Assembly (NCBI GenBank): GCA_009746045.1
Contig: RPFO01000310.1
Span: 1,186,234 to 1,250,233, forward strand
From: Mesostigma viride
Taxonomy: Eukaryota > Streptophyta > Mesostigmatophyceae > Mesostigmatales > Mesostigmataceae
Length of the DNA stretch: 64,000 bases
Reading direction: 5' to 3'
The position numbers and the translations under genes are program-made. Each line of letters begins with the position of its first letter. Positions within the stretch are counted from its first letter, which is position 1. The notes under the pieces are model-generated. The model saw nothing but the letters and a program-made list of their open reading frames with translations, had not been told where the DNA came from and ran no database searches. Below, one piece after another: positions 22,086 through 47,654 of this stretch.

Positions 22086-22750
22086 ATTTAGCGACGCCGG
22101 CCAGGCAGCTGCCGTGAGCTCCTGGTCCTTGTCGCAACTGTTAGGACCTAGGTCGCGTAGCTTGCAACCTTTGCTCCTCGCCCCAGGTAACGCTCTCGCT
22201 GGCTTGCTCACTCCAAGTGACAACCACGGTGCGTCGGCAAAGAACTGCCTTGACCTGCCTTAGGCCATAGCTTTATGTTACCTCATTTCCATGGTGCCCT
22301 AAGGCATCTCCCGTCGGCCTCGCACAGTGCACCGCTACCTTGCCAGAGCTCAGCTTACCGCTACCTTGCATCCTTGCTGCAGGCAGCGTTAAGGACCTCT
22401 GACATCCCGTGACTAGGTATCACCAGTTCCTGTCACAGCTCTGCACGGATGCGTATCCTTGCAGAGCCCGCGACTGGCCTACTGGTCTCTACTTAGCCAC
22501 AGGACCGTTGCGTCCTCAGCCTCCGTGGACCTTAGTCACGTGATGGTCCAGGCTAAGCCTGTGCAGGCCCTGCCTGCCACGTGTCCTGTCCACGGCGACC
22601 TCGGTGTGCACTGCCGCCGCCGCCGGTCGGCAGTACTTCGGGACCTGATAACTCTCACGTCCCTTGTCTGTTTAAGGCGGTCAGCACGGCGTTAGAAAGG
22701 TCTCCTCATCCTGCATCCAACTAGCACATTGGCGTCCCAATATGCTAACT
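22086..22750 (-). repeat. Element 1 3' LTR (665 bp)
   Basis: Same sequence as 29802-30466. On the element strand it is preceded by a purine-rich tract, AAGAAAGGGTTGG, that fits a polypurine tract for plus-strand priming. A second near-copy of the tract lies at about 22939-22957. Confidence 0.9.
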
Positions 22751-23685
22751 CCAACCCTTTCTTGTTTTGGAGGCTGGACCAGCCTGAGATTCCAATCAGC
22801 CATGCTCACTCATGCCACAGACTCCTGACCTCTCCCAGAGGCCAGGGCTGCCCTTCTTTTGGAACTTGAGGTTTTACCCAAAGATTAGTCCAGAGCCAAC
22901 ATTGGTTCCAAGGCCCAGCCCTGACCCAGATGTCAGCCCCCAACCCTTTCTTTTGGGAACCTGGTTGAGGAGAAAAGTGAGGTCTCTACATCCAGGCAGC
23001 TGAAGTTGGACAGAGGAAGTTATTATTGTGAGTTCCTGGTCCTTTCCAGTTATCACAGGCGCCCGTATCAGAGGCGCCCGCTCACAACCATTCCCCTTCC
23101 TTTTCATTCAACAGACACGGATAGAGCCCAGTTAATGCTTGCCAAGCTGGGGAGCCCATGTCCTCACTGAGGGATAAACTCAGGATTCACACATGCCAGG
23201 CTGTGGTCAGCTGGGGAATCGAACCCCACCCCATATCCTCCAGGTTTGGAACAGCTCCTGGAACTGTACATTACAAACAAACATGAAATGGAGATAACAC
23301 GATTATGACGTATTAATATAGAGAGAATAACCCATAATGAGGCTCCCTGGCAACCACGTCCAACATGGTCACACAACCAGGGTTTTATTAGCATGCAACA
23401 GGTTGGTTACAGAGAATATAAACAAATGTACAGCAACCTGTAAGAGCCAACATTTGGGCTGCCCTTTCAGGGTCCATTCCATGAAGACCCAAGGCCGGTT
23501 ACAAGGTCCTTAAGACCCTTCTGCAACCCCATGACAGGGCCAGGCGATATTCTCAGCCAGGGGAGTGACTCCACCCTGACCCCTGTTCAGCAGGGTGTAC
23601 GAACCCTGAAGAACCTGCTGTCAGCCATTTCTGGCTACCCAGCCCACCGGGACACATCCCACCTCAGAGCAAGGCGTTGGTCTCC
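22751..23685. other. Element 1 3' untranslated region
   Basis: About 930 bases between the RNase H stop and the 3' LTR. No ORF of note. CCAACCCTTTCTT occurs twice (next to the LTR and near 22940), a duplicated polypurine-tract-like motif. Confidence 0.5.
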
Positions 23686-24050
23686 CTAGCACCCCACCAT
23701 GGGGCCCATGAGCCCACGGAGCAGAGGGTACTGCTGCACGGCCTTCTCCTCAAGCTTGGTGAGAGCATCTGCAGGGTTATCCAGGCCAGCCACATGTTCA
23801 ATGTCAGCTAAGCAGGACAGTGCCTTGAGCAACAGATAATCAAGGTCCCTGCTTCTGGCCAGCTGCCTGTGCACGAACTGCACCATGCCCATGCTGCCAG
23901 TTTTCACCAGTGTGTGCATCTGCAACCGACAGGAAGCTACCTTACATAGCTGGTAGAAAAGCTCCCTCAAGTAAAGGGCTGTGTGCAGCCCCTCACAGAT
24001 TGCCCTGCACTCAGCAATGTCACTGCTGGGGTTACCCTATTCTGCAACCG
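23686..24050 (-). CDS. Element 1 RNase H, C-terminal part
   Basis: Copia-type RNase H tail. The AECRAI acidic motif lies just after a one-base frameshift near 24030. Then come LYLRELFYQL, an MHTLVKTGSM stretch in place of the usual TDN-type motif, ARSRDLDYLLLKAL and the closing DNPADALTK, typical of the end of copia pol. The third acidic position (D in V[YH][CT]D) is replaced by HTLV, so the enzyme may be impaired. Confidence 0.75.
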
Positions 24051-25217: not shown

Positions 25218-26394
25218 GGTACAGGACTCGTTCCAGGGATCTGGTACCTCTGCACCCCCAACTGGCGTGGGTCAAACGTAGTTGGGATGATCAGCAGGTC
25301 CTGAGCAATGGGCTCCTTAGAATCAGGCCCCTCCACTGCAACACCCTTCACAGCCCTTACAGCCACACTAAGTCCCTGGGAGTAGCGATATCTCTGGAGG
25401 GGTAAACTACCCTGCCCTTCTAGTGCCAATTCCTCAGAGGTTATCGTCACCCCCGGCTGGCATAAGAAATTCTGCCCCAGTATGGCTGGACCCTCATAGC
25501 CCTCTACCACACAGAACACAGTGGGCACCCCCAGAATAGGCACACTCACCTCCCCCAGAACTTTCATGGACACATTCCCCGAGAAATCAGACACGGCTGG
25601 GCAACCGGCTACAGACATCCGCAACCCTGCAGCATCCTCAGCCCTCAGAATGGACACCTGCGAGTTGGTATCCACCTCTAATGTTGCTGCCCAGCATGAC
25701 CCCCACCCCGTGAGCTTAGATACCTTGGGATCACGCTTGCCGCTCATCAGTGCCCGGATGACGTCCGCCATGAGGAGCCCCTTGGGCTTTGGTCCAGCCC
25801 TGGCCCCCACTGGCCTTGTGACAGTTGCTGCAGCAGATTCCAGCTCACCCTCGTCCATCCAGGACAGACCATCATCCAAGCATGGAGGGTTAGCATCTAC
25901 TGCCTGGCTCTCCTCCTGAGCCTCAACCTCCAAGGGAGGCTCAGGGCCGTCTACAGGCCAGATTGCACATGGCCTCTTCTCTCGGATGTGAGCCCAGGAC
26001 AACCTGTACACGCGCCTAGGATCCTTGTCCAAGGCTACCAGACAAGAATGGTTGGCCTCATCCAACTGGGTTACCAGCCCATCCTGCCACTTGCCACGCT
26101 TGCCTGGTATTGATGGCTCCTTCCACATCCTGACCCCCATTCCCACAGGGGCCTCAGCATTTTCCAGCCCTTGTCCTTGCGCCTCAGCCGAGCAAACACT
26201 CTATCTGCCTTTCTCAGGCAGGCACCCACTACCTCTGGGGACAACAACCCAAACTGCGCTGCTAAGGGAGAGACTGCCACACCATCATAGTAATAGTTTA
26301 CCCTGTGGTTAAGCTGTTCCTCAATCCCCTTGCACCAGGCTGCCTTTTCCAAAGCAGATGCTACCACTGGCACAGTCTTTGCTGCTAGCACCAC
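25208..26394 (-). CDS. Element 1 integrase C-terminal module and retropepsin-like domain
   Basis: Two overlapping frames (26071-26394 and 25208-26146) form one reading path with an indel. The first part is the end of integrase, with an SH3-like, GPY/F-resembling module (PGKRGKWQDGLVTQLD...VYRLSW). After a linker the second part has EVDTNSQVSIL (catalytic Asp near 25670), the strand and flap segment VSVPILGVPTVFCVVEGYEG, and PAILGQNFLCQPG. These are the DTx-S and ILGxxF hallmarks of a retropepsin, but with Asn for the Gly of DTG. It lies between integrase and RT, unlike ordinary copia elements. Confidence 0.75.
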
Positions 26395-26420
26395 TGTCTT
26401 TACCTCACGGATAGATCTCT

Positions 26421-27257
26421 CTACAGCCCCTGCTGCCCATGACTCTCTCTAGGGACCACTACCAGCTTACACGGAAGCTGATCAGCATGCTTTCTCAAGC
26501 AGTCAAACTGCAAGTCAGCTTGCACCAAGGTGTACACCCCAAAGCATGGCAACAAAGACTGGAGACCCAACAACAAGTGATGCTCATCCATGCCAGGCAG
26601 GATGGTCAACAGCCTATACCGGCTGAACCTATCCACCCCCACCAACAGATACAAACCACGAATGTGCTGTATATCTACTTGGATATCTCCCCGCTCTCTA
26701 GCAGGCTCTCTAGCGTGGGACCGTGGTGGGTGAATCTGATTCTCCTGACAGACACAGTTCTCAGCAGCTGCAGTGCAGGCCTCCAACAGAGGCTGCTTAC
26801 CTAGCTTCCAAGCAAACATTTCTGCCTGTTTAGAGTGCCCAAATACATGGTGTAGAGTATGCCCAGCGGCTGCATAGCTCAACCCCCTAGCAGTCTCACT
26901 GCATAAGGAGGAACTAGGACCTGGCTGTGTGCGCGGGACCGCACGACCCACCTCCTGCTCCTTGGAACCAGGGACCTCCACAGCTTGACTCCCAGAGCCA
27001 ACAGTGGTTCCCTCGGCGCCAGCAGGACTTTCCAGCTGAGCTGCTTGACTCCCAGAGCCAACACTCACTGAAGACCCTGTACCTGCCACAGGCCCAGGGA
27101 ATTGCACTGCTGCAGCAGCGACATTGCAATCATGTGGAAGAACAAGCCCATCAGTATTCCCAACCCCCTGCTGCTGAACAGGAGGTGCACCCCTATCATC
27201 CATATTTACAAGTGCCACCTGCCCCACCTGGGGTGGCTGACTATTTACATGGGGCAC
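26421..27257 (-). CDS. Element 1 integrase N-terminal and catalytic core
   Basis: The frame begins in phase with Gag directly after the Gag TGA stop (27267-27269). After about 120 low-complexity residues it shows the zinc module (LHHVFGH, then CVCQEN, where the last Cys of C-x2-C appears lost), the first Asp in IQVDIQHI, VGVDRFSRYRLL, and the second Asp in QADLQFDCL. The frame stops at 26421. One base further it continues AVERSIREVK, supplying the catalytic Glu; the shift lies in a GGGG run. No protease motif exists between the Gag knuckle and the zinc module. Confidence 0.8.
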   Translation of the reverse strand: MPHVNSQPPQVGQVALVNMDDRGAPPVQQQGVGNTDGLVLPHDCNVAAAAVQFPGPVAGTGSSVSVGSGSQAAQLESPAGAEGTTVGSGSQAVEVPGSKEQEVGRAVPRTQPGPSSSLCSETARGLSYAAAGHTLHHVFGHSKQAEMFAWKLGKQPLLEACTAAAENCVCQENQIHPPRSHAREPARERGDIQVDIQHIRGLYLLVGVDRFSRYRLLTILPGMDEHHLLLGLQSLLPCFGVYTLVQADLQFDCLRKHADQLPCKLVVVPRESHGQQGL

Positions 27258-27266
27258 TGCACTAAG

Positions 27267-28601
27267 TCACGGCTTCCTGGACTGACCACCTGCTCCTGCA
27301 GCATTGGCCAGATCAGGGCAATCACGGCGCCAGTGACCTGTCTTACCACAGCCAAAGCACTTATCCTCCTTCCCAGCCTGGGCCTTCCTCTGACCCCCCT
27401 GGTTCGGGTTGCCTGGCTTATTCTGGTTGCCTTGGCCCTGGCTCTTGCCTTGCCCTTGGCTACCTCCCCCCTGCTGTCCCCCTTGGTGACCACCAGCCTG
27501 CTTCTGACCCTTGTTCTGAGCCCCTTGCTGCTGGCCCTTGCCACCTTGGTTCCCACCCCCCCTGCGCCTCCCAGCCCTCTGACGCCTGCTAGGACGAGGA
27601 CCTCCCTGGGCTGCCTGCCCTGGGGCATCCCCCTGCACCTGGCTAGCGGAGGCTGAAGCACCTGAGGTCTGAATGGTTTTACAAGCAGGGGCAGATGGGC
27701 GAATGCTCAAGACTACCCTCTCTAAGGCAGCCAGCGACCCATCTGTCTGATCTGCAAACAGCCTAGCTGCATTGCGACCATCCACACTGAGCCCCATACG
27801 ATCCATGAAATAATCCACCACAGCCCTGATGGGGATCTTGAAGCCCTGGCTAGACCCCTTCTCCACAATGCGAAGGAGCCTCTGCCATTCCTCAGCTATG
27901 GTGCCCCTGATCTCAAACGTATCATAGGCCAGCTTGTAGTGATTAGTGAGGTTGAGGACTTTGTCAGAAAACTCTTGACGCAGGCCCAGGAGAAACTGCT
28001 CCCAAGAGAGCTTATCCTTCACTGCAGACCTGGCTTTGTCCCTCACACGCTCAGAAGAATCCCTATTCACTGAGGAAGCATGGAACACCTGGACGAGATT
28101 GACAGTGGGATCTACGGAGTAGGTGACTAGCTCCATATCCTCTAACCACTTGTCTAACTCCTCCTGACTCACGGGTGGCTTCAGAGGCTTCTGGCCGTTC
28201 ATCACGGCTACAGCACTCATGTGGGGCCTAGTTCCTGGCAACGCGCGAGCATCACTACCCACAGCAGAAGCCCCAGCACCCCCAGCCATAGCGTCTACAG
28301 AAACATGAGGAGGAACGACTGCCTCGGCCACACGGGCCGTCTTACCACCGTTGGCCTGCAGCCCCTCCCCTTGGCCTTCTCCAGTCAGCTCAATGCTGTC
28401 CGTTGGCCCTTCTGCGCGCTCCTTCCCCCGAGCTTCCTCCTTTCGCTTCCGGTACCGCGTCCTTTGCCCCGCCACGCCCTCCATCGTGGGAATCGCCTCC
28501 CCTTCTGGCTGGCCGACTGCTGGCACTGACGCTCCCGCCTCTCCACCCTCCATCGCAACCGCCTTGCTCCCGCCGCCGACCCCGTTCTTGCCCTTAAGCA
28601 T
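27267..28601 (-). CDS. Element 1 Gag with zinc knuckle
   Basis: The capsid-like part contains EELDKWLEDMELVTYSVDP, then WEQFLLGLRQEFSDKVLNL and TIAEEWQRLLRIVEKG. A long Gly/Gln-rich basic linker (QGGKGQQQGAQNKG) and one CCHC knuckle, CFGCGKTGHWRRDC, follow near the C-terminus. I start it at the ATG complementing 28599-28601, MLKGKNGVGG, because the extension upstream has no ATG. It ends with TGA followed by C, and the integrase frame continues in the same phase. Confidence 0.85.
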   Translation of the reverse strand: MLKGKNGVGGGSKAVAMEGGEAGASVPAVGQPEGEAIPTMEGVAGQRTRYRKRKEEARGKERAEGPTDSIELTGEGQGEGLQANGGKTARVAEAVVPPHVSVDAMAGGAGASAVGSDARALPGTRPHMSAVAVMNGQKPLKPPVSQEELDKWLEDMELVTYSVDPTVNLVQVFHASSVNRDSSERVRDKARSAVKDKLSWEQFLLGLRQEFSDKVLNLTNHYKLAYDTFEIRGTIAEEWQRLLRIVEKGSSQGFKIPIRAVVDYFMDRMGLSVDGRNAARLFADQTDGSLAALERVVLSIRPSAPACKTIQTSGASASASQVQGDAPGQAAQGGPRPSRRQRAGRRRGGGNQGGKGQQQGAQNKGQKQAGGHQGGQQGGGSQGQGKSQGQGNQNKPGNPNQGGQRKAQAGKEDKCFGCGKTGHWRRDCPDLANAAGAGGQSRKP

Positions 28602-28650
28602 TATGGGCACAGACACAAGATGGCAGCAATGAAAGCAACGCCCTCTATCC

Positions 28651-29769
28651 TCACGAAGCCTCCCCACCTGGCTCGGCCTCCTGGCTCAGCCTGGCTTGTT
28701 TGGACTCACGCTCCTGCTGCTCTCTCACGCCCGCAGGTTCTGCAACCGGTGTAACAGGACGACGCGCGACTGCCAAGTCCGCGTTGAAGACACCGTAGAC
28801 GCACCCCACCGGTCGCTGGCTGTCTTGTTGACGTTCCACAGCGACCCTGGGCTCACTAGGATTCCGGAACCACTGCTGGTTCCTCACCCACCGCGTGTCT
28901 CCGTTAGCGAGCTGGTTCTGCTCACCTCGCCCCGCCCGATCGTATTCGTGCACTGAATCCCTAGGAAGGTTTAGCTCTGAGCCCTGCTCAGCCTCGCGGA
29001 TCTGCTGCGCTGTCCTCACCACTATCCCCCTCGGGCGATCAGTGTAGGTATGGAAGATGTTATCTGGCGACCTCGCAGCCCCGGCCTCAATCGTTACCGA
29101 CAGACCTGGTGCCGATGCCGCCCTCGCGCGTCGAGGAGTATCCAAAAATGTGAAGATTCCAGGTGGGTTGGTGGTGATCACAAACCTGTCTGCCTGCCCC
29201 CTTGCCTCTTGCAAAAGCACAGCAACTAAATTCTCAACAGTTTGCGAAAACACTTCAGCCGATACCCACGGATTGATCTCCTCACGTCTCCTCGCTTCCC
29301 GGATCTCGTCTGTCTCTGGAATTCCCTCGCCCAGCACCGCCGTAGCCACCCAGTGGTTAAAAAGGCGCGTGCTTCCCAAGGCTATAGCCACAATCTGGCT
29401 ACACGCTTCTCTCGCAAGGTCAAGGCTTGCTGGCGTAATATGACCCCCCTGATACGCCACCTCAACGCCGCTAGCTGTGATAGCCAACGCGTCGCGTAGC
29501 CGCACCAGTTCTTCAATGGCCACCCGCCCAGCTTCCCCTGGCGCGCTTGTCACGCGGGCCCTTTGCACTATAGGATCCGCTGCAGCCGCCCGGTTGCCCC
29601 CCCCGAAACTGCGACCCAACCCTCGTCGGCAAGCCCTCTCGCAATGTATGCCGCCTGCACAAACGTAGGCGCACTTGCTGGCTGCCGGTATGGGTAAAAA
29701 GGAGCTTCTTGCGAGCTCTGACCTTCGTCTCCCGCGGCTGGATGGCCCGTAGACGATGCGCCAGACATG
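28651..29769 (-). CDS. Element 1 ORF1, unknown
   Basis: The first ORF after the 5' LTR. Coding starts MSGASSTGHPAAGDEGQSS near 29769 and changes frame in a run of eight C (29596-29603). It continues in the frame beginning GNRAAAADPIVQRARV and ends QARLSQEAEPGGEAS at 28651. The middle is helical (AIEELVRLRDALAITASG, ASLDLAREACSQIVAI). It might be an N-terminal Gag part or a separate protein. No family recognised. The indel in a C8 run is a classic sequencing-error context. Confidence 0.5.
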   Translation of the reverse strand, partial: HVWRIVYGPSSRGRRRSELARSSFLPIPAASKCAYVCAGGIHCERACRRGLGRSFGGGNRAAAADPIVQRARVTSAPGEAGRVAIEELVRLRDALAITASGVEVAYQGGHITPASLDLAREACSQIVAIALGSTRLFNHWVATAVLGEGIPETDEIREARRREEINPWVSAEVFSQTVENLVAVLLQEARGQADRFVITTNPPGIFTFLDTPRRARAASAPGLSVTIEAGAARSPDNIFHTYTDRPRGIVVRTAQQIREAEQGSELNLPRDSVHEYDRAGRGEQNQLANGDTRWVRNQQWFRNPSEPRVAVERQQDSQRPVGCVYGVFNADLAVARRPVTPVAEPAGVREQQERESKQARLSQEAEPGGEAS

Positions 29770-29801
29770 AAATGGCAGGAAATCACGAAAACAATAATAC
29801 G

Positions 29802-30466
29802 ATTTAGCGACGCCGGCCAGGCAGCTGCCGTGAGCTCCTGGTCCTTGTCGCAACTGTTAGGACCTAGGTCGCGTAGCTTGCAACCTTTGCTCCTCGCCCC
29901 AGGTAACGCTCTCGCTGGCTTGCTCACTCCAAGTGACAACCACGGTGCGTCGGCAAAGAACTGCCTTGACCTGCCTTAGGCCATAGCTTTATGTTACCTC
30001 ATTTCCATGGTGCCCTAAGGCATCTCCCGTCGGCCTCGCACAGTGCACCGCTACCTTGCCAGAGCTCAGCTTACCGCTACCTTGCATCCTTGCTGCAGGC
30101 AGCGTTAAGGACCTCTGACATCCCGTGACTAGGTATCACCAGTTCCTGTCACAGCTCTGCACGGATGCGTATCCTTGCAGAGCCCGCGACTGGCCTACTG
30201 GTCTCTACTTAGCCACAGGACCGTTGCGTCCTCAGCCTCCGTGGACCTTAGTCACGTGATGGTCCAGGCTAAGCCTGTGCAGGCCCTGCCTGCCACGTGT
30301 CCTGTCCACGGCGACCTCGGTGTGCACTGCCGCCGCCGCCGGTCGGCAGTACTTCGGGACCTGATAACTCTCACGTCCCTTGTCTGTTTAAGGCGGTCAG
30401 CACGGCGTTAGAAAGGTCTCCTCATCCTGCATCCAACTAGCACATTGGCGTCCCAATATGCTAACT
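29802..30466 (-). repeat. Element 1 5' LTR (665 bp)
   Basis: Same length and, by eye, same sequence as 22086-22750. On the element strand the LTR ends GCTAAAT and is followed by CGTATTATTG, which does not start TGG. Confidence 0.9.
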
Positions 30467-30497
30467 GTCACGGGACTTGTGTGGCTGCTCCCTTCAG

Positions 30498-30596
30498 GGT
30501 GGGAATACCCCGCTACATGAGGTGTCATGGGGTGGCCATCTGGATGTCGTCCAGCACCTCATCGCCAGCGGCGCAGACGTGAACGCTGTGGACATG
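30498..30596 (+). CDS. Ankyrin repeat exon 7
   Basis: 99 bp, acceptor TTCAG, donor GTCAGTGA. It reads GGNTPLHEVSWGGHLDVV and ends GADVNAVDM; Val replaces the Ala after LHE. Confidence 0.85.
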
Positions 30597-30654
30597 GTCA
30601 GTGATCACTTCATGCATTGGGCAAGGGGGATGTGCTGTTTTATAATGAAATATT

Positions 30655-31260: not shown

Positions 31261-31318
31261 GTCGGTGATGACTCCATGCAGTGGGCAAGGGGGATGTGCT
31301 GTTTTATAGTGAAAGATT

Positions 31319-34228: not shown

Positions 34229-34573
34229 AGTTGAGTAACTCTAGAGCCCTAGGATCTGGCTCTAAGTTCCCCATGTCCGTCCGCACGCCTTCCGCTAGCG
34301 TCCGCTAAGCCGCCAGCTATAATCCGGCGGTCCGATGCGGTCGACCGGTCTAAGGGCGGCGCCTAGGGCCGGCGCCACCTAGGCCCCAGTCCGGGGCCTT
34401 ATCCGGGTCGGTACGGACAGCTAGCTTGTCCCACGGTTACGGCTAACCGGATAGGGTTTGCTGGCTAAGACATAAACCAGTGGTGGGCCAGCTCCGACAG
34501 CAGTTCTCTGTGTTCACCTTATCCCAAGCTCAACGTGACCGACCGCCATAGCTGAGCCGGTCGGGCTTTAACT
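34229..34573 (+). repeat. Element 2 5' LTR (345 bp)
   Basis: GC-rich, with several short inverted repeats such as GGCGCCTAGGGCCGGCGCC. It is followed directly by TGTATTCAT, the same nine bases that follow the 5' LTR of element 3. Confidence 0.9.
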
Positions 34574-37374: not shown

Positions 37375-39659
37375 CGGGACCTAGTGCACGTAGTGACTCA
37401 CCTCCTGTGCTAGCCACGGATAATGTGGGAGGCCCGCCTAGCGTGGCCTCGCCGGAGGGTCAGGGTCCTGCCCATGCGCCTCGCCCACCTAGGGACCTGG
37501 CTTCAACGGTCACGGCCTTGTGGCGTGCTCAGGCGCTTAAAGCGAAAGCTGCATCAGGGGTGGCTCAGGTCAAAACTCTCTCACAGGGGGTCAGGCCGGT
37601 TAAGTCAGCCTTGTTTCCTACGTGTAGACCGTGGCAGCTGGTGGCTGTGGACACGCAAGCATCCGTGTCTATTATCTCTCGTCGGGCAGCCACCCTGTAT
37701 CCAGTGCTAGAGTCGCCGTACAAATCGGTGACCGACTTTGCAGGCACTTCGGCATATCAAGTTACCGGGATGGTGGTGCTGCCGGTGTTGGGCATTGACA
37801 CGCCGTTTCACGTCGTGGATGGCTACGAGGATGTGGCCTTGCTGGGCGAACCTTTCGTATCATACCCGGGGTTCTCAGTGTCCGCTGACTTGCTGTCAGT
37901 CGCGGGGGTGGGCAGCATCCCGCTTCGCGAGTACCACGCTCCATTGGGGGTGGTGGTCGGGCAGCCCGGCGTCGTGCGGCGCTTACCGATGGCGGCGTTT
38001 TCCACACCGCCGCTCGTCCAGTCCATCATTCAGCCTCAGGATTGGCACCCGCGCAGCTTCGGCCTCCACTCACACTCACTGGCGGCGGATAGCCCTGTGA
38101 CGTGGGAGCAACTTGTCCTGGACTGTCAAGATCCTCTCAAGTTTGCTTTGTGGCGCGACGCGTTCATTCGAGCCAAGGAGCAGTGGCGAGAGCGCGAGGT
38201 CTACCGAGGATTGGAGAGTGTGCCAGCCGGGGCCACGCGGTTGCGGTTGAAGTTCGTGCTCACCTACAAGCCGGACGAGACCAACTCTTCGGTGGTGTTC
38301 CGGGTTAGGCCCGTGGTCACGGAGACGAAGGGGTCCTCCCCGCTGGACGCCAAGGATCTTTATACCCCTGGGCTCAACCATGTTTCGCATCGGCTACTGA
38401 CGGTCATCTACTTGGGCAAGCGGAACGCGGGCAAGGACTACGGGATGTGGTGCGGTGACTTTCAGCGGGCATTCCTCCACAGCGACGCTGGGGTCGCGCA
38501 GCAAACATGGCAAGGCACCCGCTACGTGGTGAAGGTCCCGGTGGTCTGGCAGGATGGCACCATTGGCAGCGAGTATATCGAGCTGTTGACAGGGGTGGAG
38601 GGGCTGCAGAGCTCTCCCATCATCTTCCGCATTTCCGCGGAGGAGGTCTTGCAGAGCTTAGGGGCCACGTACCATCGCGCTGATCCTAACTTCTTTGTGG
38701 TCCCCACCGGCGTCCCTGGCGAGCCAGCCCTCTTCGTGTGGCATGGCGATGACTTCAAGCTGGTGGCACCTCGCACATTTGCTACCCAGTTTCTTGCTGC
38801 AGTGGCGGCTAAGTTTCCCCTGGGCAGGGCGGTGGATCATGAGGAGGGTAAACCCGTGGTGTTTTGCGGCGTGCAGTCTACGTTGCAGCGGGATTCGCGT
38901 TCTGGCGAATGGGTCATGCACATGCAGGATAGCCGCAACTATGTGGTTGACCTGCTGGCCGACCTCCCGTCCCCGCTGTTGGCAACCCATGGGCCCTCGG
39001 TTAAGGGCAAGCTCGGGTGGTTGGCGGACACGGTGGCACCTGATTTGGCAGTGCTCGCTCGCCTGCCCGATGATGTGCTGGAAGGACTAGGGTCCATTCA
39101 TGTTCGGCGGCAGCTGGCCATGACGCCCGGCATTGTGCTTCGTGGGCTCGATTGCTCACAGCCGGTGCACCTCGAGATAGTGACGGATGCTAATCTAGAG
39201 ACGCGCACAGTCAGCCAAGTGCGGGCCCGCATGGGGGCGCTGTTCTTTATCAGCAATGAGGGCCAGCCTGGCATGTTGTTAGATTGGTACTCGCGCTTGC
39301 ACAGCCGCATTGCCACTAGCCCCAACACGGCTGAATGCCGGGGCATTGTTTCAGCTATCTCACATGGCATGTGGCTGCGGTACTTGCTGGGTTGGGTATT
39401 TGGCTCGTGTGGGTTCACTCTTCACTGGACTAGCACGGTGCACACTGACTCACAAAGTTGTTTGGCCTTCCTTGACAATCCCTATGCGCGGTCACAGGAC
39501 GTTGATTACCTCGTACTCGCTGAGGCGGCCTCCTGCGTCACGCGTCTCCAGCACATCGCGGATGAACTCAATCCCGCGGATGCACTCACCAAGGAGGCGC
39601 GGGAGGCTGCCCCGCAGTACGCAGTGTTGCGCAAGCGCATGACGATGCAACACCCGTGA
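37341..39659 (+). CDS. Element 2 retropepsin-like domain, RT and RNase H
   Basis: 772 residues. The protease-like domain is near residues 100-195: LVAVDTQASVSIISRRA (DTQ for DTG), TGMVVLPVLGIDTPFHVVDG, VALLGEPFVSYPG. Copia-type RT follows: LKFVLTYKPDETN, VFRVRPVVTETKG, CGDFQRAFLHSD, LTGVEGLQSSPII, VWHGDDFKLV (HGDD). RNase H has EIVTDANLETRT, NTAECRGIV, VHTDSQSCLAFLDN and ELNPADALTKEA, so the acidic residues are intact. The frame relation to the integrase ORF is minus one, and where ribosomes switch is unknown. Confidence 0.88.
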   Translation: MDGWDEDGVGLTGPSARSDSPPVLATDNVGGPPSVASPEGQGPAHAPRPPRDLASTVTALWRAQALKAKAASGVAQVKTLSQGVRPVKSALFPTCRPWQLVAVDTQASVSIISRRAATLYPVLESPYKSVTDFAGTSAYQVTGMVVLPVLGIDTPFHVVDGYEDVALLGEPFVSYPGFSVSADLLSVAGVGSIPLREYHAPLGVVVGQPGVVRRLPMAAFSTPPLVQSIIQPQDWHPRSFGLHSHSLAADSPVTWEQLVLDCQDPLKFALWRDAFIRAKEQWREREVYRGLESVPAGATRLRLKFVLTYKPDETNSSVVFRVRPVVTETKGSSPLDAKDLYTPGLNHVSHRLLTVIYLGKRNAGKDYGMWCGDFQRAFLHSDAGVAQQTWQGTRYVVKVPVVWQDGTIGSEYIELLTGVEGLQSSPIIFRISAEEVLQSLGATYHRADPNFFVVPTGVPGEPALFVWHGDDFKLVAPRTFATQFLAAVAAKFPLGRAVDHEEGKPVVFCGVQSTLQRDSRSGEWVMHMQDSRNYVVDLLADLPSPLLATHGPSVKGKLGWLADTVAPDLAVLARLPDDVLEGLGSIHVRRQLAMTPGIVLRGLDCSQPVHLEIVTDANLETRTVSQVRARMGALFFISNEGQPGMLLDWYSRLHSRIATSPNTAECRGIVSAISHGMWLRYLLGWVFGSCGFTLHWTSTVHTDSQSCLAFLDNPYARSQDVDYLVLAEAASCVTRLQHIADELNPADALTKEAREAAPQYAVLRKRMTMQHP

Positions 39660-40035: not shown

Positions 40036-40380
40036 AGTTGAGTAACTCTAGAGCCCTAGGATCTGGCTCTAAGTTCCCCATGTCCGTCCGCACGCCTTCC
40101 GCTAGCGTCCGCTAAGCCGCCGGCTATAATCCGGCGGTCCGATGCGGTCGACCGGTCTAAGGGCGGCGCCTAGGGCCGGCGCCACCTAGGCCCCAGTCCG
40201 GGGCCTTATCCGGGTCGGTACGGACAGCTAGCTTGTCCCACGGTTACGGCTAACCGGATAGGGTTTGCTGGCTAAGACATAAACCAGTGGTGGGCCAGCT
40301 CCGACAGCAGTTCTCTGTGTTCACCTTATCCCAAGCTCAACGTGACCGACCGCCATAGCTGAGCCGGTCGGGCTTTAACT
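40036..40380 (+). repeat. Element 2 3' LTR (345 bp)
   Basis: Identical to the 5' LTR apart from one substitution. It is followed by the second TATGG, from which the host frame resumes. Confidence 0.9.
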
Positions 40381-41199: not shown

Positions 41200-41681
41200 A
41201 GTTGGTTGGAGACCCATCTAGGGTCCACATGGGTCCTCAGAGATAGAGGATCTTGTACAGATTACTACAATATACTTTATTGTAGTATTGGGCCAATGGC
41301 TGTACTTCACTAGTACTCGCCAATGGGATAACGCCACGTAGAATATGTGGGCGTCTCCCAGGCCTCCACGTCACCGGCTGGTCAAGGGCCGGTGCAGTCC
41401 TGTCAATAGGATTGAGCCGACTATCGGCCTATCATGTATGCGCATCTGCCTTGGTACCTCCTAGAGGATTCTAGAAGTATTTAACACGCGGCATGCACTG
41501 AACTACACGGAATGCATGTCCACGTAGGATATTCAGCAAGACTGATGAAGGTGCCAAACGCAATAGAATATATGCGCAACGAAGACGAATTATGCAGCAA
41601 CGACAATAACGTATGAGAACAATAAACACAACGTTCATTTCATGCTTTCTGATTTACATCGCATTCCATTTATTTGCAACT
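41200..41681 (+). repeat. Element 3 5' LTR (482 bp)
   Basis: Contains a nine-base hairpin stem, ACTACAATA/TATTGTAGT, near 41262. It is followed immediately by TGTATTCATTGCA and then the Gag ATG at 41695, so the leader is only 13 bases. Confidence 0.92.
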
Positions 41682-41694
41682 TGTATTCATTGCA

Positions 41695-42936
41695 ATGTCT
41701 TCGGACGACAATCTTTCAGAGCAGAGGTCTGGCCCTGGTGAGCACGGACCGGCTCAATTTTCTGTCGACCCTGGCCCAGGCGAGCACAGGGATGACAATA
41801 AGGATATGTCCGACCAGCCCCGGGAGGAGGGCTGCGGGCAGGGAAGTACTAGTAGTGACAACCAGCGTGCGCGTGATAAGGTGCTTCGGCGGGAGACCTT
41901 GCTTCAAGAGGCGAAGCTGCTGTCGGCAATCAAGAAATGGGTTCCAGCCCCGCTGGTGCCTGGTGCTATTCAAGCAGACCGGGATCGCTTTGTAAGCTCT
42001 CTTGGGCCGTTTTTCCGCAGGCTCGCGGGCAACCGAGACATCATTCCGGACTGGCTGGAGTTTCTTCGTGGAACCCCGCTGGGAGACCGCGAGAAAAACC
42101 ACCCAGAGTGGATTTCGCTGCTGGATAGAGCACAGCGTCTGCGGTGGTCGCCGTTCGAGTTTCTGCGCCGAGCGAGGGAGACTTTTCTTCGTTCTATCAC
42201 TGCCAAAACCTGCGACGAGATCGAGGAATTTGTAGATGCAAAGCCGAAGCCCGGGCAGACCATCATCGAGCACCTCAACTCTTACTACGACATGCTGGAG
42301 AAGCAGGGGCTCCGGTGGCCTGACGAGGCGGTGAATCTCCGATGGATCCAAAACTGTGCTCTGTCCGAATCCGAGAAGCGGAATTTGGTCGCCAACTGCC
42401 GCGGTTACCTGTGCGACACTCACCGATGCAGAGCTCACCTCAAGGAGCTCCTGACGAATCAAACCCGTGTTTCCAGAGAAGGAGGTGCCGCGGAGGTGCC
42501 TCGTGTCGCCATGGTGATGGAGCAGCAACGGGAAATCTTCTGCTACAACTGCGGGCAGCCCGGGCACACACGCCGCGCATGTAAGGGTAAGGTTGTCGCT
42601 AATTCTGAGTCCTTCCCTCCCTGCACTTTCTGTAATAGGACTAACCATCTGGCTAAGGATTGCTACTTTCGCAAGTGCAAGTCTTGTGGCAATTCTGGAC
42701 ATGATGCGTCTGCCTGCAGGAGCAAGGCGGGCGCTGGACCCAAGGATACCCAGATGGAGGTCCTCAAGCTGCTGCAGCAGATCTCCCAAGCCGTCAAGAG
42801 CGGTGCCCTTCGTGGTGGCGACGCTTCTCAGCCGCGTGGTGGTGACGCTTCCCAGCCGCGTGGTGGTGATGCTTCTCAGCCGCGGGGTGGCAATACCTCT
42901 CGTGGCCGCAAGAGGAAGCAGCAGCAGAAAAACTAG
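41695..42936 (+). CDS. Element 3 Gag with three zinc knuckles
   Basis: 413 residues from the ATG just outside the LTR (MSSDDNLSEQRSGPGEHG). The capsid-like middle includes WLEFLRGTPLGDREKNHPEW, LRRARETFLRSITAKTCDEI and IEHLNSYYDMLEKQGLRWPD. Three CCHC knuckles follow: CYNCGQPGHTRRAC, CTFCNRTNHLAKDC and CKSCGNSGHDASAC. The tail has three GGDASQPR octapeptide repeats and ends RGRKRKQQQKN. The stop TAG follows GAAAAAC, a possible minus-one slippery heptamer; the Pol frame is minus one relative to Gag. Confidence 0.92.
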   Translation: MSSDDNLSEQRSGPGEHGPAQFSVDPGPGEHRDDNKDMSDQPREEGCGQGSTSSDNQRARDKVLRRETLLQEAKLLSAIKKWVPAPLVPGAIQADRDRFVSSLGPFFRRLAGNRDIIPDWLEFLRGTPLGDREKNHPEWISLLDRAQRLRWSPFEFLRRARETFLRSITAKTCDEIEEFVDAKPKPGQTIIEHLNSYYDMLEKQGLRWPDEAVNLRWIQNCALSESEKRNLVANCRGYLCDTHRCRAHLKELLTNQTRVSREGGAAEVPRVAMVMEQQREIFCYNCGQPGHTRRACKGKVVANSESFPPCTFCNRTNHLAKDCYFRKCKSCGNSGHDASACRSKAGAGPKDTQMEVLKLLQQISQAVKSGALRGGDASQPRGGDASQPRGGDASQPRGGNTSRGRKRKQQQKN

Positions 42937-42974: not shown

Positions 42975-45900
42975 ATGGATGCTGATGAGAGTGGACTCAT
43001 GGCAGATGAGGCCTGCCAGGTGGTAGGGGCTCCAGCAGTAACCCCTACTGACCGTAAAGCTGCCCCAGTGAGCAGCAGTAAAAGTGCCCCTGTTTGTGGC
43101 ATTCCTATCCATGCCTGGAATAAAAAGAGTACCCCAGAGGGAACTCTTCCTGTAAATAATACATGTGGATCTGCTCCTGGTTGTAGACAGATGCCACATG
43201 GTGTTGCCCAGGTGAGCAACGTATCTGTGAACAATACATGTGGTGCAGCTCCTGTTTGTAGCCAAGCACCCATTGATATTGTTAACAGTCAAGCTCCTCA
43301 GAGCAATAATCCTTGTTATATTGATAATAAAAACTTGGACTCTTGCTCTGCCAGGAACGTGGATGCCCGTCCATGTCCTGAAGAGCCTGAGCCTAATGAT
43401 TGTATTAATCTTAGGACTCTGGCTAAGAGTTTGCATGATGCCTGTGGCCATGGAAACAATGCCATTAGGCTTGTTCAAGCCATTAATAACAAGGCTCTCT
43501 GGCAGGCTTATCAAGATGTCAGAGAACATTGTGTGTGCCAATTGTGTGCTAACAAGCCTTCCAAACGTCATGCAAAGCATCCTGCAGATGGTAGGGGTAA
43601 TCTACAAGCTGATATCCTCTACTTCACCAATTACAGGCAATTGCCTTACTTGGTGGCTGTGGATGAATGGTCAGGCTACATTGGAATTGAACCTATGGCA
43701 GCAGGGGATGAGAATACTCTCCATGCCGCAGTTCTTGTTATTCTGCAGAAGTTTGCAGTTATTCATAAGCTGCAGATGGACTTGCAGTTTAACTGCCTGA
43801 CCAAATACTCTGATCTGCCTTTCCTAAGGATTGTGGGTCGTGAAGATCACCAAGCCCAAGGCAAGGTTGACAGATATATACAGGAGCTTAAGAAGTTGGT
43901 AATATCCGGGGACTATCCTGAGATGTTTAAACCAACTTTTGCTGTCAGGTGTTTGGGTGCTGCAAAAGTGGAAAACACCATGAACAACCGTTTTCATACT
44001 ATCAAGGTGCGTGGTGTTCCACGGCTGGTCTCACCTCGTGGACTAGCAGGTGGCCTCTACCCTGATGACATCATGCAGGCATGGAGTAAGCAGAGGTGGG
44101 CACAGTATGCTCATCTCTGTGAAAAGGATAAACAGAGAGGAGAATCATTAAAATTTGAGGTGGGAGACCAGGTGATCTTCCACAAAGAAAATGCTCCTGG
44201 TAAACGTGGTTATTGGCAGGGTCCAGGGACCATAACCTCAGTTGACCTGGAGATGAAAACTGCTGATGTGGTCTGGAATGGGACCACTTATCATCTGGCT
44301 TGGAATAGATTGAAGAGAGATCCAATGAACGTTCAAGAAAATCCCCTGGAAATTATGGCCCCTGAAGAGGCACTTGGATCTCCCAATCTTTCCTGTCCAC
44401 CTTTGGCCAGTGAACAGGCTGGACTCCAACTACCAGAAAGGGCGGCCTCCCATCAACTGGAGCCTACTACTCAGCAAGCTCAGCCTAAGACATTGACTGG
44501 GATATCACAGGATGATATGGATGAAGCTGACTTGTTGGATAATAGGGTGTCTGATCAGCACCGGAAGCTCCGGCCGTTGGAACATGGGCTTGAGACCCCT
44601 GGGCAGGTGGATAACATATTTCAGTCTGAACAGCCAAAGCTTGGATCCAATTACCCTGGTAATAAGCCATTGCCCTTGGAGACTGATGGGATTCCAGCCC
44701 AAGGAAGACAAGCTGAGGAGGGGTTGTCCAGGTTGAACACTCAGCTCGGCAAGAGAGGCAATCCTCAAGAGCTTCGGGATATTGTAAAGAAGCTCAAGCC
44801 CTCACTAAAGATTGCCAAAATAACTTCTCTTCTAGAGAAGGGCATGGACCTTGATGGCTTTGATGTGGATACCAAAGCAGAGGTCTCTGTCACCTCGCCC
44901 TTTAATGCTTTGCTGGATAAGTATTCCCTTGAACCCAGTCCATGGACTATTGTCCAAGACTTTGCGGGTAACACTGATCATCAAGTTCTTGGGAATATCA
45001 CTATCCCATTCTTGGGTGAGTCTTTGACACTTTGTGTTGTTGATGGCTATAAGGGACCCACTCTCATTGGCCAGCCATTCTTGGTGACTCCCGGTGTTAC
45101 CATTGTTGATGGCCCCAATAACACAAAGAGTCTCCTAAAAACCCATTGTGACCCAATTCCTCTGGAATCATTCAGATGTCTCTTGCCTCTTGAAATGTTC
45201 CAGAAGGCAAATTGGAAGACCGCCTGTGTCGGTTCAATAAAAGGAGCAGAATGGGGAAGGGATATACCCCCAGCTTCTGAGCTGGTAGAACCCGCCCAGC
45301 TCAGTGTGACTTCTCTTGGTCTCACAAAAAGGTCATTTGCTGCTCATAGCCCCATGTCCTTTGATGATGTAGACCTGGATTGTCACACTTTCGCTGGCCT
45401 TGAGGCCTGGCGAGTAGCATTGGCGCGTGCGCTCCAGGAGTGGCAAACGCTGGATGTTTTTGAAGGCATTTCAGAACCTCCACCCAATGCTCAAATGCTT
45501 CAGTTGCGTTTTGTATGCAAGATGAAGAGCAAGCTTGGTGAGCCTCCCATACCAAACGCACGTCCAGTCGTGACCCAGTTCCATGGTACTACAGACTTTG
45601 ATAAGGAGGAGCTGTACACTCCTGGCCTGTCACATCCTGTTCTCAGGCTTATTCTTAGTCTGTACCTTGGTGCTTTGGACTATGGCTTGGATTATGGAGC
45701 AGAAATTGATGACTTCACCAGGGCCTTTTTGCATGGTGATCCTCAGGTGGCCAGAGCCACTTGGCAAGCTCAAAGACCCTGTTGTGTTAAGACCCCAGCA
45801 TGCTGGATAGCTGAAGTAGGTCATCCCTACATGCAGCCTAAAGTGGGCTGGGAAGGACTGGTCAGCAGTCCAGTCATCTGGTATGAAACCATTGCTCCTG

Positions 45901-46904
45901 CCATCCAGGAGAGATGTCAGATGCAACAATCTCATCTTGCTTATTGTCTCTTTGTGGGGCAATCCAAAGGACAACCCACCTGGGCTACCTTACATGGAGA
46001 TGATATGCAACGCATTGGTCCCAAGGGATGGTTGAATGAGACCTATAAAAGGCTCAATGACAAGTCCCCTATTGGTACCAGAGCATGGTTTAGTAAAAAC
46101 AGCCAGGTACCTTACTGTGGCATTGGCTGTACCCTTTTCCAGGATGACAAAGGATGGCATCTTAAGCTGCAATCGGCGAAGGGGTATAAAGAAAAAGTAA
46201 TAACTCAGTTGCCCAAGAGAGTAACTGAGGAGAATGCCCCTACGGTTAAAGGTCAACTGGGTTGGCTGGCTGCCACAACTAACCCTGACCTGGCAGTACA
46301 GAGTAGGATGCCAGACTCTGTTGTTGTAGGAGAAGGAAGGAGGCGCCTGGAGAGCTGCCTCAATGAATCTCCTGACTTGGTGTTGTCCGGTGTAGACTGG
46401 CATGGGCGCATCATCATAGACGCCTACACAGATGCTAGCCAAGAGTCTAGATCTGCCAACAAGATTGGTGCCAGAGCCGGATGCCTGATCACCATCAGGA
46501 ATGAAGGCAAACAGCCCTCGTTGGTATACTGGTCCAGTAACCTTCAGAGGAGGCGGTTTGCTGGCATTGACACCGCTGAGTGCAGGGCATACGCCATGTG
46601 CATTCGCGATGCCATATACATAAGAGAGCTACTCTTATGGTGTCTGAGTCAGATAAGACCTCAACCCGTGATTGATGTCAGGGTTTATTGTGATAATAAG
46701 CCCGTGGTCTCTTTTATCAAGAATGAGAGGGCCACTACTACTGACTTGGACTACCTTGTGGCAAAGGAGTTGTCCAGCCACTGTATAACCATACATCTGC
46801 CAGGACACTCAAATCCTGCTGATGCTATGACCAAGCTTCCACGACTGGCCCTTAATGGGTACCAGTTGCTGCGGTCCATGATGGCTGGGAAACCCTTGTC
46901 ATGA
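42975..46904 (+). CDS. Element 3 Pol: integrase - retropepsin-like - RT - RNase H
   Basis: 1309 residues in one frame, which is open upstream past the Gag stop. Order: 150-residue low-complexity Cys-rich N-terminus; zinc module LHDACGHG and CVCQLC (about 153-190); integrase Asp in QADILYF and LQMDLQF; third position KVDRYIQEL (Asp, not Glu). Then GPY/F-like GKRGYWQGPGTITSVDL, a linker, and the protease-like domain from about 630 (DVDTKAEVSV; ITIPFLGESLTLCVVDGYKG; PTLIGQPFL). RT follows with FVCKMKSK, NARPVVTQFHGT, IDDFTRAFLHGD and LHGDDMQRIGP. RNase H has AYTDASQES, TAECRAY, VYCDNKPVV and HSNPADAMTKLP, so its catalytic residues are intact. It proves that the IN-PR-RT order is not an artefact of broken frames. 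Confidence 0.93.
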   Translation: MDADESGLMADEACQVVGAPAVTPTDRKAAPVSSSKSAPVCGIPIHAWNKKSTPEGTLPVNNTCGSAPGCRQMPHGVAQVSNVSVNNTCGAAPVCSQAPIDIVNSQAPQSNNPCYIDNKNLDSCSARNVDARPCPEEPEPNDCINLRTLAKSLHDACGHGNNAIRLVQAINNKALWQAYQDVREHCVCQLCANKPSKRHAKHPADGRGNLQADILYFTNYRQLPYLVAVDEWSGYIGIEPMAAGDENTLHAAVLVILQKFAVIHKLQMDLQFNCLTKYSDLPFLRIVGREDHQAQGKVDRYIQELKKLVISGDYPEMFKPTFAVRCLGAAKVENTMNNRFHTIKVRGVPRLVSPRGLAGGLYPDDIMQAWSKQRWAQYAHLCEKDKQRGESLKFEVGDQVIFHKENAPGKRGYWQGPGTITSVDLEMKTADVVWNGTTYHLAWNRLKRDPMNVQENPLEIMAPEEALGSPNLSCPPLASEQAGLQLPERAASHQLEPTTQQAQPKTLTGISQDDMDEADLLDNRVSDQHRKLRPLEHGLETPGQVDNIFQSEQPKLGSNYPGNKPLPLETDGIPAQGRQAEEGLSRLNTQLGKRGNPQELRDIVKKLKPSLKIAKITSLLEKGMDLDGFDVDTKAEVSVTSPFNALLDKYSLEPSPWTIVQDFAGNTDHQVLGNITIPFLGESLTLCVVDGYKGPTLIGQPFLVTPGVTIVDGPNNTKSLLKTHCDPIPLESFRCLLPLEMFQKANWKTACVGSIKGAEWGRDIPPASELVEPAQLSVTSLGLTKRSFAAHSPMSFDDVDLDCHTFAGLEAWRVALARALQEWQTLDVFEGISEPPPNAQMLQLRFVCKMKSKLGEPPIPNARPVVTQFHGTTDFDKEELYTPGLSHPVLRLILSLYLGALDYGLDYGAEIDDFTRAFLHGDPQVARATWQAQRPCCVKTPACWIAEVGHPYMQPKVGWEGLVSSPVIWYETIAPAIQERCQMQQSHLAYCLFVGQSKGQPTWATLHGDDMQRIGPKGWLNETYKRLNDKSPIGTRAWFSKNSQVPYCGIGCTLFQDDKGWHLKLQSAKGYKEKVITQLPKRVTEENAPTVKGQLGWLAATTNPDLAVQSRMPDSVVVGEGRRRLESCLNESPDLVLSGVDWHGRIIIDAYTDASQESRSANKIGARAGCLITIRNEGKQPSLVYWSSNLQRRRFAGIDTAECRAYAMCIRDAIYIRELLLWCLSQIRPQPVIDVRVYCDNKPVVSFIKNERATTTDLDYLVAKELSSHCITIHLPGHSNPADAMTKLPRLALNGYQLLRSMMAGKPLS

Positions 46905-47172
46905 GGAGTAATCTGGGAGCCTGAGCCTAATGCTCCTCCTGTAGGTTTTTATCCCCCTGGAGGTTTTGTCCTCTCTGGAGAAGAGGTTTTCCTTCAGATT
47001 TGGGTTTTCCCTACAGCAGGTTACACCAACCATGCAATGATGAGATGCAAACTCCATAAGACCCAAGTGAGTCCCCATTGCCCACATATGTGAAAGTGAA
47101 CTGGCCAGGTGCGGCCGAACATCAATGAATACATCTAAGCCTTATCACTTTCACAAGGGAAAGAATGGCTGG
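46905..47172. other. Element 3 3' untranslated region
   Basis: No ORF. AAGGGAAAGAATGGCTGG directly before the 3' LTR is a candidate polypurine tract. Confidence 0.5.
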
Positions 47173-47654
47173 AGTTGGTTGGAGACCCATCTAGGGTCCA
47201 CATGGGTCCTCAGAGATAGAGGATCTTGTACAGATTACTACAATATACTTTATTGTAGTATTGGGCCAATGGCTGTACTTCACTAGTACTCGCCAATGGG
47301 ATAACGCCACGTAGAATATGTGGGCGTCTCCCAGGCCTCCACGTCACCGGCTGGTCAAGGGCCGGTGTAGTACTGTCAATAGGATTGAGCCGACTATCGG
47401 CCTATCATGTATGCGCATCTGCCTTGGTACCTCCTAGAGGATTCTAGAAGTATTTAACACGCGGCATGCACTGAACTACACGGAATGCATGTCCACGTAG
47501 GATATTCAGCAAGACTGATGAAGGTGCCAAACGCAATAGAATATATGCGCAACGAAGACGAATTATGCAGCAACGACAATAACGTATGAGAACAATAAAC
47601 ACAACGTTCATTTCATGCTTTCTGATTTACATCGCATTCCATTTATTTGCAACT
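47173..47654 (+). repeat. Element 3 3' LTR (482 bp)
   Basis: Matches the 5' LTR except for two substitutions in GGTG[C/T]AGT[C/A]CTG. The host coding sequence resumes directly after the TATTC duplication. Confidence 0.92.

What the first reader, a model, noticed from the sequence alone, without database searches (positions are those of the whole stretch)
22086..47654. Three copia-like elements with a permuted Pol: integrase - retropepsin-like - RT - RNase H
Ty1/copia Pol normally runs PR-IN-RT-RH. Here all three elements (22.1-30.5, 34.2-40.4, 41.2-47.7 kb) have a retropepsin-like domain between integrase and RT, and none shows one between Gag and integrase. The motif is DT followed by N, Q or K instead of G (DTNSQVSIL, DTQASVSII, DTKAEVSV), with an ILG/LLG/LIGxxF partner motif 55-75 residues later. 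Element 3 carries the order in a single uninterrupted 1309-residue ORF, so it is not an effect of broken frames. Shared traits also include HGDD in RT and AGTT..AACT-type LTR ends. This looks like a distinct lineage. I cannot say from the sequence alone whether it has been described.
Basis: partly seen in the sequence, partly recalled or inferred. Interest (0 to 1): 0.88.

Follow-up and report, generated by a model that had tools for sequence, protein, structure and literature searches.

The report
Jumping genes with relocated protease
Three recently inserted virus-like jumping genes in this eukaryotic genome belong to an abundant lineage whose protein-cutting enzyme appears to sit between the integrase and the reverse transcriptase instead of in front of both, a gene order that an earlier survey discarded as a likely error.

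Summary
All three elements are LTR insertions with perfect 5-bp target duplications and near-identical LTRs. Each has a homologous domain between integrase and reverse transcriptase. For element 1 it is predicted to have the retropepsin fold: all listed PDB matches are retropepsins. Three retropepsin profiles find nothing convincing in the Gag-integrase linkers.

In the unnamed 440-Mb genome the elements belong to abundant families: 60 identical matches to element 3's integrase core, 58 of 58 scored copies of element 2's PR-RT-RH frame, 113 matches at 79% to element 1's PR frame. Families L035, L050 and L051 have the same order in one open frame each. RT and RNase H are Ty1/copia type, but the lineage is its own 100/100 clade on a long stem. 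Three ordinary copias of the same genome keep PR-IN-RT-RH.

The protease carries the ILG (non-copia) motif and compares better with gypsy-type than copia proteases, so capture of a foreign retropepsin is likely. The residue after the catalytic D-T/S is never glycine in six families. The domain is under purifying selection (dN/dS 0.15, like RT). No relatives were found in the other collections searched, which hold few eukaryotes. Cleavage is untested; the host is unidentified.

The parts
29802..30466 (-). Element 1, 5' LTR (element runs on minus strand)
   Evidence: 100% identical to 22086-22750; TSD GTGAC
22086..22750 (-). Element 1, 3' LTR
28654..29853 (-). Element 1 ORF0, conserved extra frame upstream of gag, function unknown
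   Evidence: 60% identity over 251 aligned columns to the same frame in L035; no Pfam family over its cut-off
27270..28667 (-). Element 1 Gag with CCHC zinc knuckle
   Evidence: Pfam zf-CCHC 3.5e-5
26424..27257 (-). Element 1 integrase, N-terminal half (frame broken beyond)
   Evidence: rve E 0.0064, below cut-off; homologous to el2 and el3 integrase
25358..25771 (-). Element 1 retropepsin-like domain (DTNSQVSIL ... ILGQNF)
   Evidence: AF2 model and Foldseek/VIA: retropepsins; dN/dS 0.153 against L035
23970..25217 (-). Element 1 RT (HGDD) and start of RNase H; rest of RNase H in another frame, about 23707-24027
   Evidence: RVT_2 7.1e-7, 29.5 bits, below cut-off 31.6; copia RT profile 7.3e-20
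34229..34573 (+). Element 2, 5' LTR
   Evidence: TSD TATGG
40036..40380 (+). Element 2, 3' LTR
35182..37374 (+). Element 2 frame with zinc knuckles (read by eye) and integrase (about 36271-37176)
   Evidence: homologous to el3 integrase, 32% over 313 columns
37341..39659 (+). Element 2 frame with retropepsin-like domain (37557-37958, DTQASVSII ... LLGEPF), RT (HGDD) and RNase H
   Evidence: copia RT profile 5e-16, RH 5.6e-9; 58 of 58 scored genome copies 100% identical
41200..41681 (+). Element 3, 5' LTR
   Evidence: TSD TATTC
47173..47654 (+). Element 3, 3' LTR
41674..42936 (+). Element 3 Gag with CCHC zinc knuckles
   Evidence: Pfam zf-CCHC 7.3e-10
42975..46904 (+). Element 3 Pol, 1309 aa, order IN-PR-RT-RH in one frame
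   Evidence: 35 of 35 scored copies identical
43410..44321 (+). Element 3 integrase (HHCC; D213, D269, and D299 at the usual third place; E290 in REDH)
   Evidence: Foldseek of AF2 model: the 50 listed rows are all retroviral integrases, best E 1.5e-9; model confidence low
44805..45200 (+). Element 3 retropepsin-like domain (D632-T-K ... LIGQPF)
   Evidence: homologous to the el1 and el2 domains
45399..46901 (+). Element 3 RT (HGDD from residue 1007) and RNase H
   Evidence: copia RT profile 4.4e-16, RH 1.1e-6

Best explanation
The three elements are recently active, Ty1/copia-related LTR retrotransposons of a separate deep lineage with the Pol order integrase - retropepsin - RT - RNase H. In that lineage the usual copia protease in front of integrase is gone, and an ILG-type (gypsy/cellular-like) retropepsin sits in the integrase-RT linker. 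Probable working: Gag and Gag-Pol are made from one RNA; the retropepsin dimerises inside particles and cuts the polyproteins; RT and RNase H copy the RNA; integrase joins the LTR ends to the target with 5-bp duplications. Shown: order, purifying selection, many identical copies, TSDs. Predicted: the retropepsin fold. Inferred: cleavage activity, capture of the protease from a non-copia source, particle-based life cycle.
For: Order in the three window elements and in single long frames of three further families: L035 1195 aa, L050 1301 aa and L051 1371 aa (their integrase is placed by the match and by motif).

Copies: 35/35 el3 Pol identical. Of 30 fetched el3 loci, 28 have no nucleotide change in pol; for the 26 whose 3' LTR lines up, the first 15 flanking bases all differ, though three flanks (L009, L019, L020) are alike at 55-56 of 60 bases. 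60 of 151 matches are identical to the el3 integrase core, 58/58 el2; the el1 PR frame has 127 matches, 10 at 99-100% and 113 at 79%.

Retropepsin; a profile of six families against PDB gives proteases in 14 of 15 rows (8 named HIV-1 protease), best E 0.0029, over the C-terminal half. Selection: dN/dS PR 0.153, RT 0.147, IN half 0.138, linker 0.446. No other protease.

Copia type: RT profile 7e-20 to 5e-16 in el1, el2, el3 and L035, 3e-24 and 1.1e-26 in L050 and L051; RVT_2 over its cut-off in L051. Own clade 100/100.

Non-copia PR: hhalign to host gypsy-type PRs E 5.9e-5 over 84 columns, to host copia PRs E 0.074 over 16 columns out of register. PMC2774666 passages give LLS as the copia state and ILG as that of other PRs.
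Against: No residue after the catalytic D-T/S is glycine in the six families, so activity could be lost or altered. The fold was predicted with useful confidence for el1 only; the el3 model (integrase + PR) had mean pLDDT 43, pTM 0.24. The profiles that compare PR types rest on 3 to 6 sequences, and one of the four rows of the gypsy-type set looks bacterial. CoDi-like copia PRs also have Q after D-T/N, and the copia PR profile touches the DTQ place in L052 (E 0.0093) and el2 (E 1.7), which might mean a copia origin. The new PR profile also gives a weak, motif-less match inside the Gag frame of L050 (6.8 bits, E 0.00093 for five frames; 0.011 with the six-family profile), which I take as chance. 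All members come from one genome. The window copies of el1 and el2 are not in one frame.
Confidence: 0.87

Rival explanations
1. The domain is a retropepsin fold that no longer cuts (a pseudoprotease kept for assembly or dimerisation), and processing is done by a host protease or not at all.
For: The residue after the catalytic D-T/S is Q, N or K in six of six families, never G; G is general in retropepsins (recalled).
Against: The D-T/S and the ILG-type partner motif are kept in all six, and dN/dS over the domain is like that of RT and IN. Three CoDi-like copias also carry Q there in the PR read from them.
Confidence: 0.25
2. The PR is the ordinary copia PR that was moved from before to after integrase by a rearrangement and then diverged, not captured from another source.
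For: Q after D-T as in CoDi-like copia PRs; the copia PR profile weakly finds the same DTQ place in L052, a diverged el2 copy (E 0.0093; the gypsy-type profile finds it at 0.032), and in el2 (E 1.7).
Against: Partner motif is ILG type, not LLS; profile comparison favours gypsy-type PR (5.9e-5 against 0.074).
Confidence: 0.25
3. Artefact: misassembly, broken frames or chance motifs mimic a permuted order.
For: El1 and el2 have frame breaks in the window; a plant survey removed every element with unexpected order as likely incorrect (PMC6317226 passage).
Against: One open frame in el3, L035, L050 and L051; 35/35 identical el3 Pol copies, most of them with unlike flanks among those examined; perfect TSDs in the window.
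Confidence: 0.01
4. The lineage is a chimera with a non-copia integrase, so that the unit is not copia with a moved PR but a new assembly of IN, PR and copia RT-RH.
For: Copia IN profile is weak (best E 1.7e-4 in L052, 0.011 in L051, 0.03 in el2, 0.36 in L035; no match in the L050 Pol frame); the usual third acidic place is E, D or N across families.
Against: IN lies before RT as in copia, and the CoDi-like copia integrases share an EH...[VI]ER pattern. Integrase trees were not run.
Confidence: 0.3

Closest known systems
Ty1/copia (Pseudoviridae)
   Same: RT and RNase H type, integrase before RT, CCHC Gag, 5-bp TSDs
   Different: PR after instead of before integrase; PR partner motif ILG instead of LLS; LTR ends AGTT..AACT (AAAT in el1); deep separate RT clade
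CoDi elements of diatoms (label for P0038, P0045, P0048 is recalled; order PR, IN, RT, RH for diatom copia elements seen in passages of PMC2806351)
   Same: Q after D-T/N in PR, H in the RT motif in two of three, EH...[VI]ER integrase pattern
   Different: these sequences have PR before integrase; different RT clade
Gmr1 Ty3/gypsy elements (PMC2774666 passages; Goodwin and Poulter 2002 seen only in its reference list)
   Same: known case of a changed Pol order in LTR elements
   Different: there integrase lies upstream of RT in a gypsy element, still downstream of PR
Ty3/gypsy and cellular retropepsins (Ddi1)
   Same: ILG-type retropepsin; best structural matches of the el1 model
   Different: DTG in the comparison sequences L041-L044, D[TS][QNK] here; here inside a copia-type Pol
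Troyka (PMC12440569; outline, abstract and Introduction read)
   Same: recent example of a new LTR superfamily with non TG..CA ends
   Different: 3-bp TSDs, CG..CG ends, animal hosts, most likely sister to a group with gypsy and retroviruses

Membership tests
Ty1/copia (Pseudoviridae) | Copia-type RT (RVT_2) | tested here: met
   L051 39.3 bits over cut-off 31.6; el1, L050 and L035 below it (29.5, 26.9, 18.1); el2 and el3 no Pfam hit; copia RT profile 7e-20 to 5e-16 in the three window elements
Ty1/copia (Pseudoviridae) | Copia-type RNase H directly after RT | tested here: met
   profile E 5.6e-9 (el2), 9.8e-8 (L035), 1.1e-6 (el3), el1 piece only 0.039; L050 1.1e-10, L051 7.4e-9
Ty1/copia (Pseudoviridae) | Pol order PR-IN-RT-RH | tested here: not met
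   IN-PR-RT-RH in el1, el2, el3, L035, L050, L051
Ty1/copia (Pseudoviridae) | PR with LLS motif (PMC2774666; nearly all copia PRs) | tested here: not met
   ILG, LLG, LIG or IIG in six of six families
Ty1/copia (Pseudoviridae) | RT inside known copia clades | tested here: inconclusive
   own clade 100/100 against 24 to 26 other copia-type rows; sampling small, most rows unnamed, stem very long, deeper placement unresolved
Ty3/gypsy (Metaviridae) | order PR-RT-RH-IN and gypsy RT | tested here: not met
   integrase before RT; the window's gypsy RT as phmmer query gives no hit below E 3 in these elements
Retropepsin (clan AA) | retropepsin fold | tested here: met
   predicted structure, el1 domain only
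Retropepsin (clan AA) | D[TS]G catalytic motif (recalled) | tested here: not met
   D[TS][QNK] in six of six families
Retropepsin (clan AA) | ILG-type partner motif | tested here: met
   six of six families
Retropepsin (clan AA) | proteolytic activity | not testable with these tools
   needs bench work
DDE integrase | HHCC, then D, D and E | tested here: inconclusive
   HHCC and two D kept; usual third place E (L035, L051), D (el2, el3) or N (L050); another E in [RL]E[DCS]H is kept in all six families

The most novel reading that the evidence does not exclude
A new superfamily-level lineage of LTR retroelements: copia-type RT-RNase H, lost copia protease, a captured ILG-type retropepsin between integrase and RT that works with D[TS][QNK] instead of D[TS]G, and an integrase whose third catalytic acid has drifted from its usual place to an invariant E nine residues earlier.
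Probability: 0.4. Interest if true: 0.88.

Novelty: new variant of a known kind. Interest (0 to 1): 0.76.

Why it matters
[quoted passage not shown] A permuted lineage with many identical copies shows that the order can change and stay highly successful. It bears on how the protease is counted and timed in retroelement particles and on modular exchange of proteases between element classes. It also gives a natural test of whether the glycine of the retropepsin active site is dispensable. Standard annotation can miss such elements: el2 and el3 Pol had no Pfam hit at E 1.

Tried and rejected
Relatives outside the genome. The 5.8-billion-protein search with el3 Pol gave none at E <= 0.001 among 3889 candidates; with profile A1, of 7997 scored candidates, it gave only the window's own protein and one ordinary copia (E 2e-6). 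Viral contigs four scans, genome contigs two scans, plasmids and phages: none. Each contig scan used two short peptide patterns. These collections hold few eukaryotes, so absence elsewhere is not shown.

Third catalytic residue. I first read the integrase as DDD throughout; L035 (E), L051 (E) and L050 (N) showed that it varies, so the DDD idea was dropped.

A VDSGS string in the Gag-IN linker of L035 looked like a protease motif; el1 has G in place of D there, no ILG follows, and the copia and gypsy PR profiles give no match in L035 Pol. A match of the new PR profile inside the Gag frame of L050 (6.8 bits) lacks the D-T motif and lies before the zinc knuckles; taken as chance.

Programmed frameshift between integrase and PR in el2: the end of the integrase frame is the same in the window copy and three others, but no classical slippery heptamer was found, the stretch holds long C and G runs, and copies differ by small indels. 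Left open.

Primer site: the bases after the 5' LTR ([TC]GTATT) do not begin with TGG; primer not identified. Rfam at gathering threshold and the tRNA scan of the window: nothing.

Trees: P0042 and P0050 were dropped (motif not found or misplaced), the el1 piece was left out, and P0052, P0046 and the gypsy outgroup were left out of the second tree there.

Host: searches for host marker genes did not complete. Host unknown.

Papers. Searches listed no paper whose title or shown abstract reports this order; most listed papers were not opened. Strings such as IN-PR-RT gave 0 papers while PR-IN-RT type strings gave 20. Open-access text only. Seen: PMC12440569 outline, abstract and Introduction; PMC6317226, PMC2774666 and PMC2806351 passages; the others as search listings.

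Full report
What was checked. The three elements are real LTR retrotransposons. Self-comparison gives LTR pairs of 665, 345 and 482 bp with 0, 1 and 2 mismatches, each with a perfect 5-bp target duplication: GTGAC, TATGG, TATTC. El1 runs on the minus strand; repeats spaced about 570-700 bp lie on both sides of it, so it sits in a repeat array. El3 lies inside a host gene: with one duplication kept, the joined flanks read through as a 392-codon frame; a protein kinase frame follows downstream.

No second protease. Profiles for the new PR, for gypsy-type PRs and for copia PRs were run over 352 six-frame ORFs of 40 aa or more from 22086-47655, plus L035 Pol and three ordinary copias of the same genome. 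The new PR profile hits strongly only once per element, between integrase and RT; the next match has E 1.2. The copia profile hits the three host copias (1e-31 to 1e-35, but these rows are in the profile) and nothing below E 0.4 in the window; the gypsy-type profile nothing below 0.45. In L050 the new PR profile also gives a 6.8-bit match in the Gag frame, without the D-T motif, which I take as chance.

The genome. The window lies in an unnamed 440-Mb assembly of 2243 contigs. El3 Pol: 35 of 35 scored copies identical in protein. Of 30 fetched loci, 28 have no nucleotide change in pol and two have 1 and 3. For 26 of the 30 the 3' LTR lines up without gaps; their first 15 flanking bases all differ, but the flanks of L009, L019 and L020 are alike at 55-56 of 60 bases (which corrects). 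El3 integrase core: 60 of 151 matches identical, window copy included. El2 PR-RT-RH: 58 of 58 scored copies identical. El1 PR frame: 127 matches, 10 at 99-100%, 113 at 79%. One 79% copy, L035, has Gag and a 1195-aa Pol with the order IN-PR-RT-RH. The integrase query also brought two distant families, at 41% (13 rows) and 31% (4 listed rows; not all rows were listed). L050 (1301 aa) and L051 (1371 aa) each carry the permuted order in a single frame. L052 is a diverged el2 copy. Ordinary copia elements of the same genome (L037, L038, L039) have PR before integrase; L040 is a broken near-copy of L038.

Relationship. A copia RT profile built from 25 rows finds the window RTs at 7e-20 to 5e-16; a copia RNase H profile (11 rows) finds el2, L035 and el3 at 5.6e-9 to 1.1e-6 and the el1 piece at 0.039; a gypsy RT query finds nothing below E 3. 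L051 passes the RVT_2 cut-off. The RT trees give one clade, 100/100, on a stem of 3.4-3.7 changes per column, with or without the gypsy outgroup and two of the longest other branches. Placement deeper in the tree is not resolved.

The protease. Six families show D-[TS]-[QNK], never G, with ILG, LLG, LIG or IIG as partner motif. PMC2774666 gives LLS as the state of nearly all copia PRs and ILG as predominant in the others (passages). Profile comparison favours gypsy-type PRs (E 5.9e-5, 84 columns) over copia PRs (E 0.074, 16 columns out of register); with four families the values were 0.002 and 0.29. The gypsy-type set (A8) includes one row, L041, that looks bacterial. Between el1 and L035, dN/dS is 0.153 for the domain, 0.147 for RT, 0.138 for half of integrase and 0.446 for the linker in front of the domain (one pair of families). 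The domain is thus held by selection about as firmly as RT. My reading: a retropepsin of non-copia type was gained in the integrase-RT linker and the old copia PR was lost. Cleavage activity is inference.

Integrase. The HHCC and two D are kept. The usual third place is E in L035 and L051, D in el2 and el3, N in L050, while an E in [RL]E[DCS]H, nine residues earlier, is kept in all six families, el1 included. On the RT tree the two D families are not sisters. The catalytic acid may have moved; untested.

Expression. Gag and Pol lie in the same frame with an intervening TGA in L035 and el1, and in different frames in el3; el2 has a further frame change between integrase and PR. Recoding is possible but not shown.

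Literature. PMC2774666 lists five integrase positions, none of them integrase-PR-RT. PMC6317226 removed all elements of unexpected order. Order strings for this case gave 0 papers, those of the usual order 20. Within these open-access searches I saw no report of the order.

Limits. One genome, host unknown, one usable fold model, small PR profiles, one pair for dN/dS; copy counts are lower bounds by the tool's own statement.

Noticed in passing
window 40533-41199 and 47655-50217: El3 interrupts a host gene; the frame reads through the empty site, and kinase, HECT and RZ-type zinc finger matches follow downstream.
   Followed up: partly
window 18300-22085 and 30450-32860: Direct repeats spaced mostly about 570-700 bp that flank el1 on both sides; el1 is inserted in the array.
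   Followed up: no
window 9640-14060 minus strand: Ty3/gypsy element pieces: RVT_1 with YLDD, integrase H2C2 and rve.
   Followed up: partly
window 51405-53877: Mutator-like transposase piece and a PHD finger (just under its cut-off) in neighbouring frames.
   Followed up: no
window 28654-29853 (-); L035 552-1448 (+): Extra conserved ORF upstream of gag in the el1 families, 60% identical over 251 aligned columns, no known domain.
   Followed up: partly
L041 (C2011, contig of 1,488,356 bases): A retropepsin-like protein that looks bacterial (recalled resemblance to alphaproteobacterial clan AA proteases) on a 1.5-Mb contig: perhaps an endosymbiont or contaminant.
   Followed up: no
G000:C1624:598015-598383: El3-type integrase inside an open frame of 9742 codons.
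   Followed up: no
G000:C1:7251959-7269229; L013: Cluster of four el3-type copies in both orientations; the 3' LTR of L013 is followed by what looks like el3 internal sequence.
   Followed up: no
L037, L038, L039: Ordinary copias of this genome have HVDD in RT and VLDSAASSHM or VVDTGATYHM in PR.
   Followed up: partly
P0052: Metagenome copia with VLDSGS near the N-terminus and a second LLDSGA string further on, before RT; could be another case of a second or moved PR.
   Followed up: no
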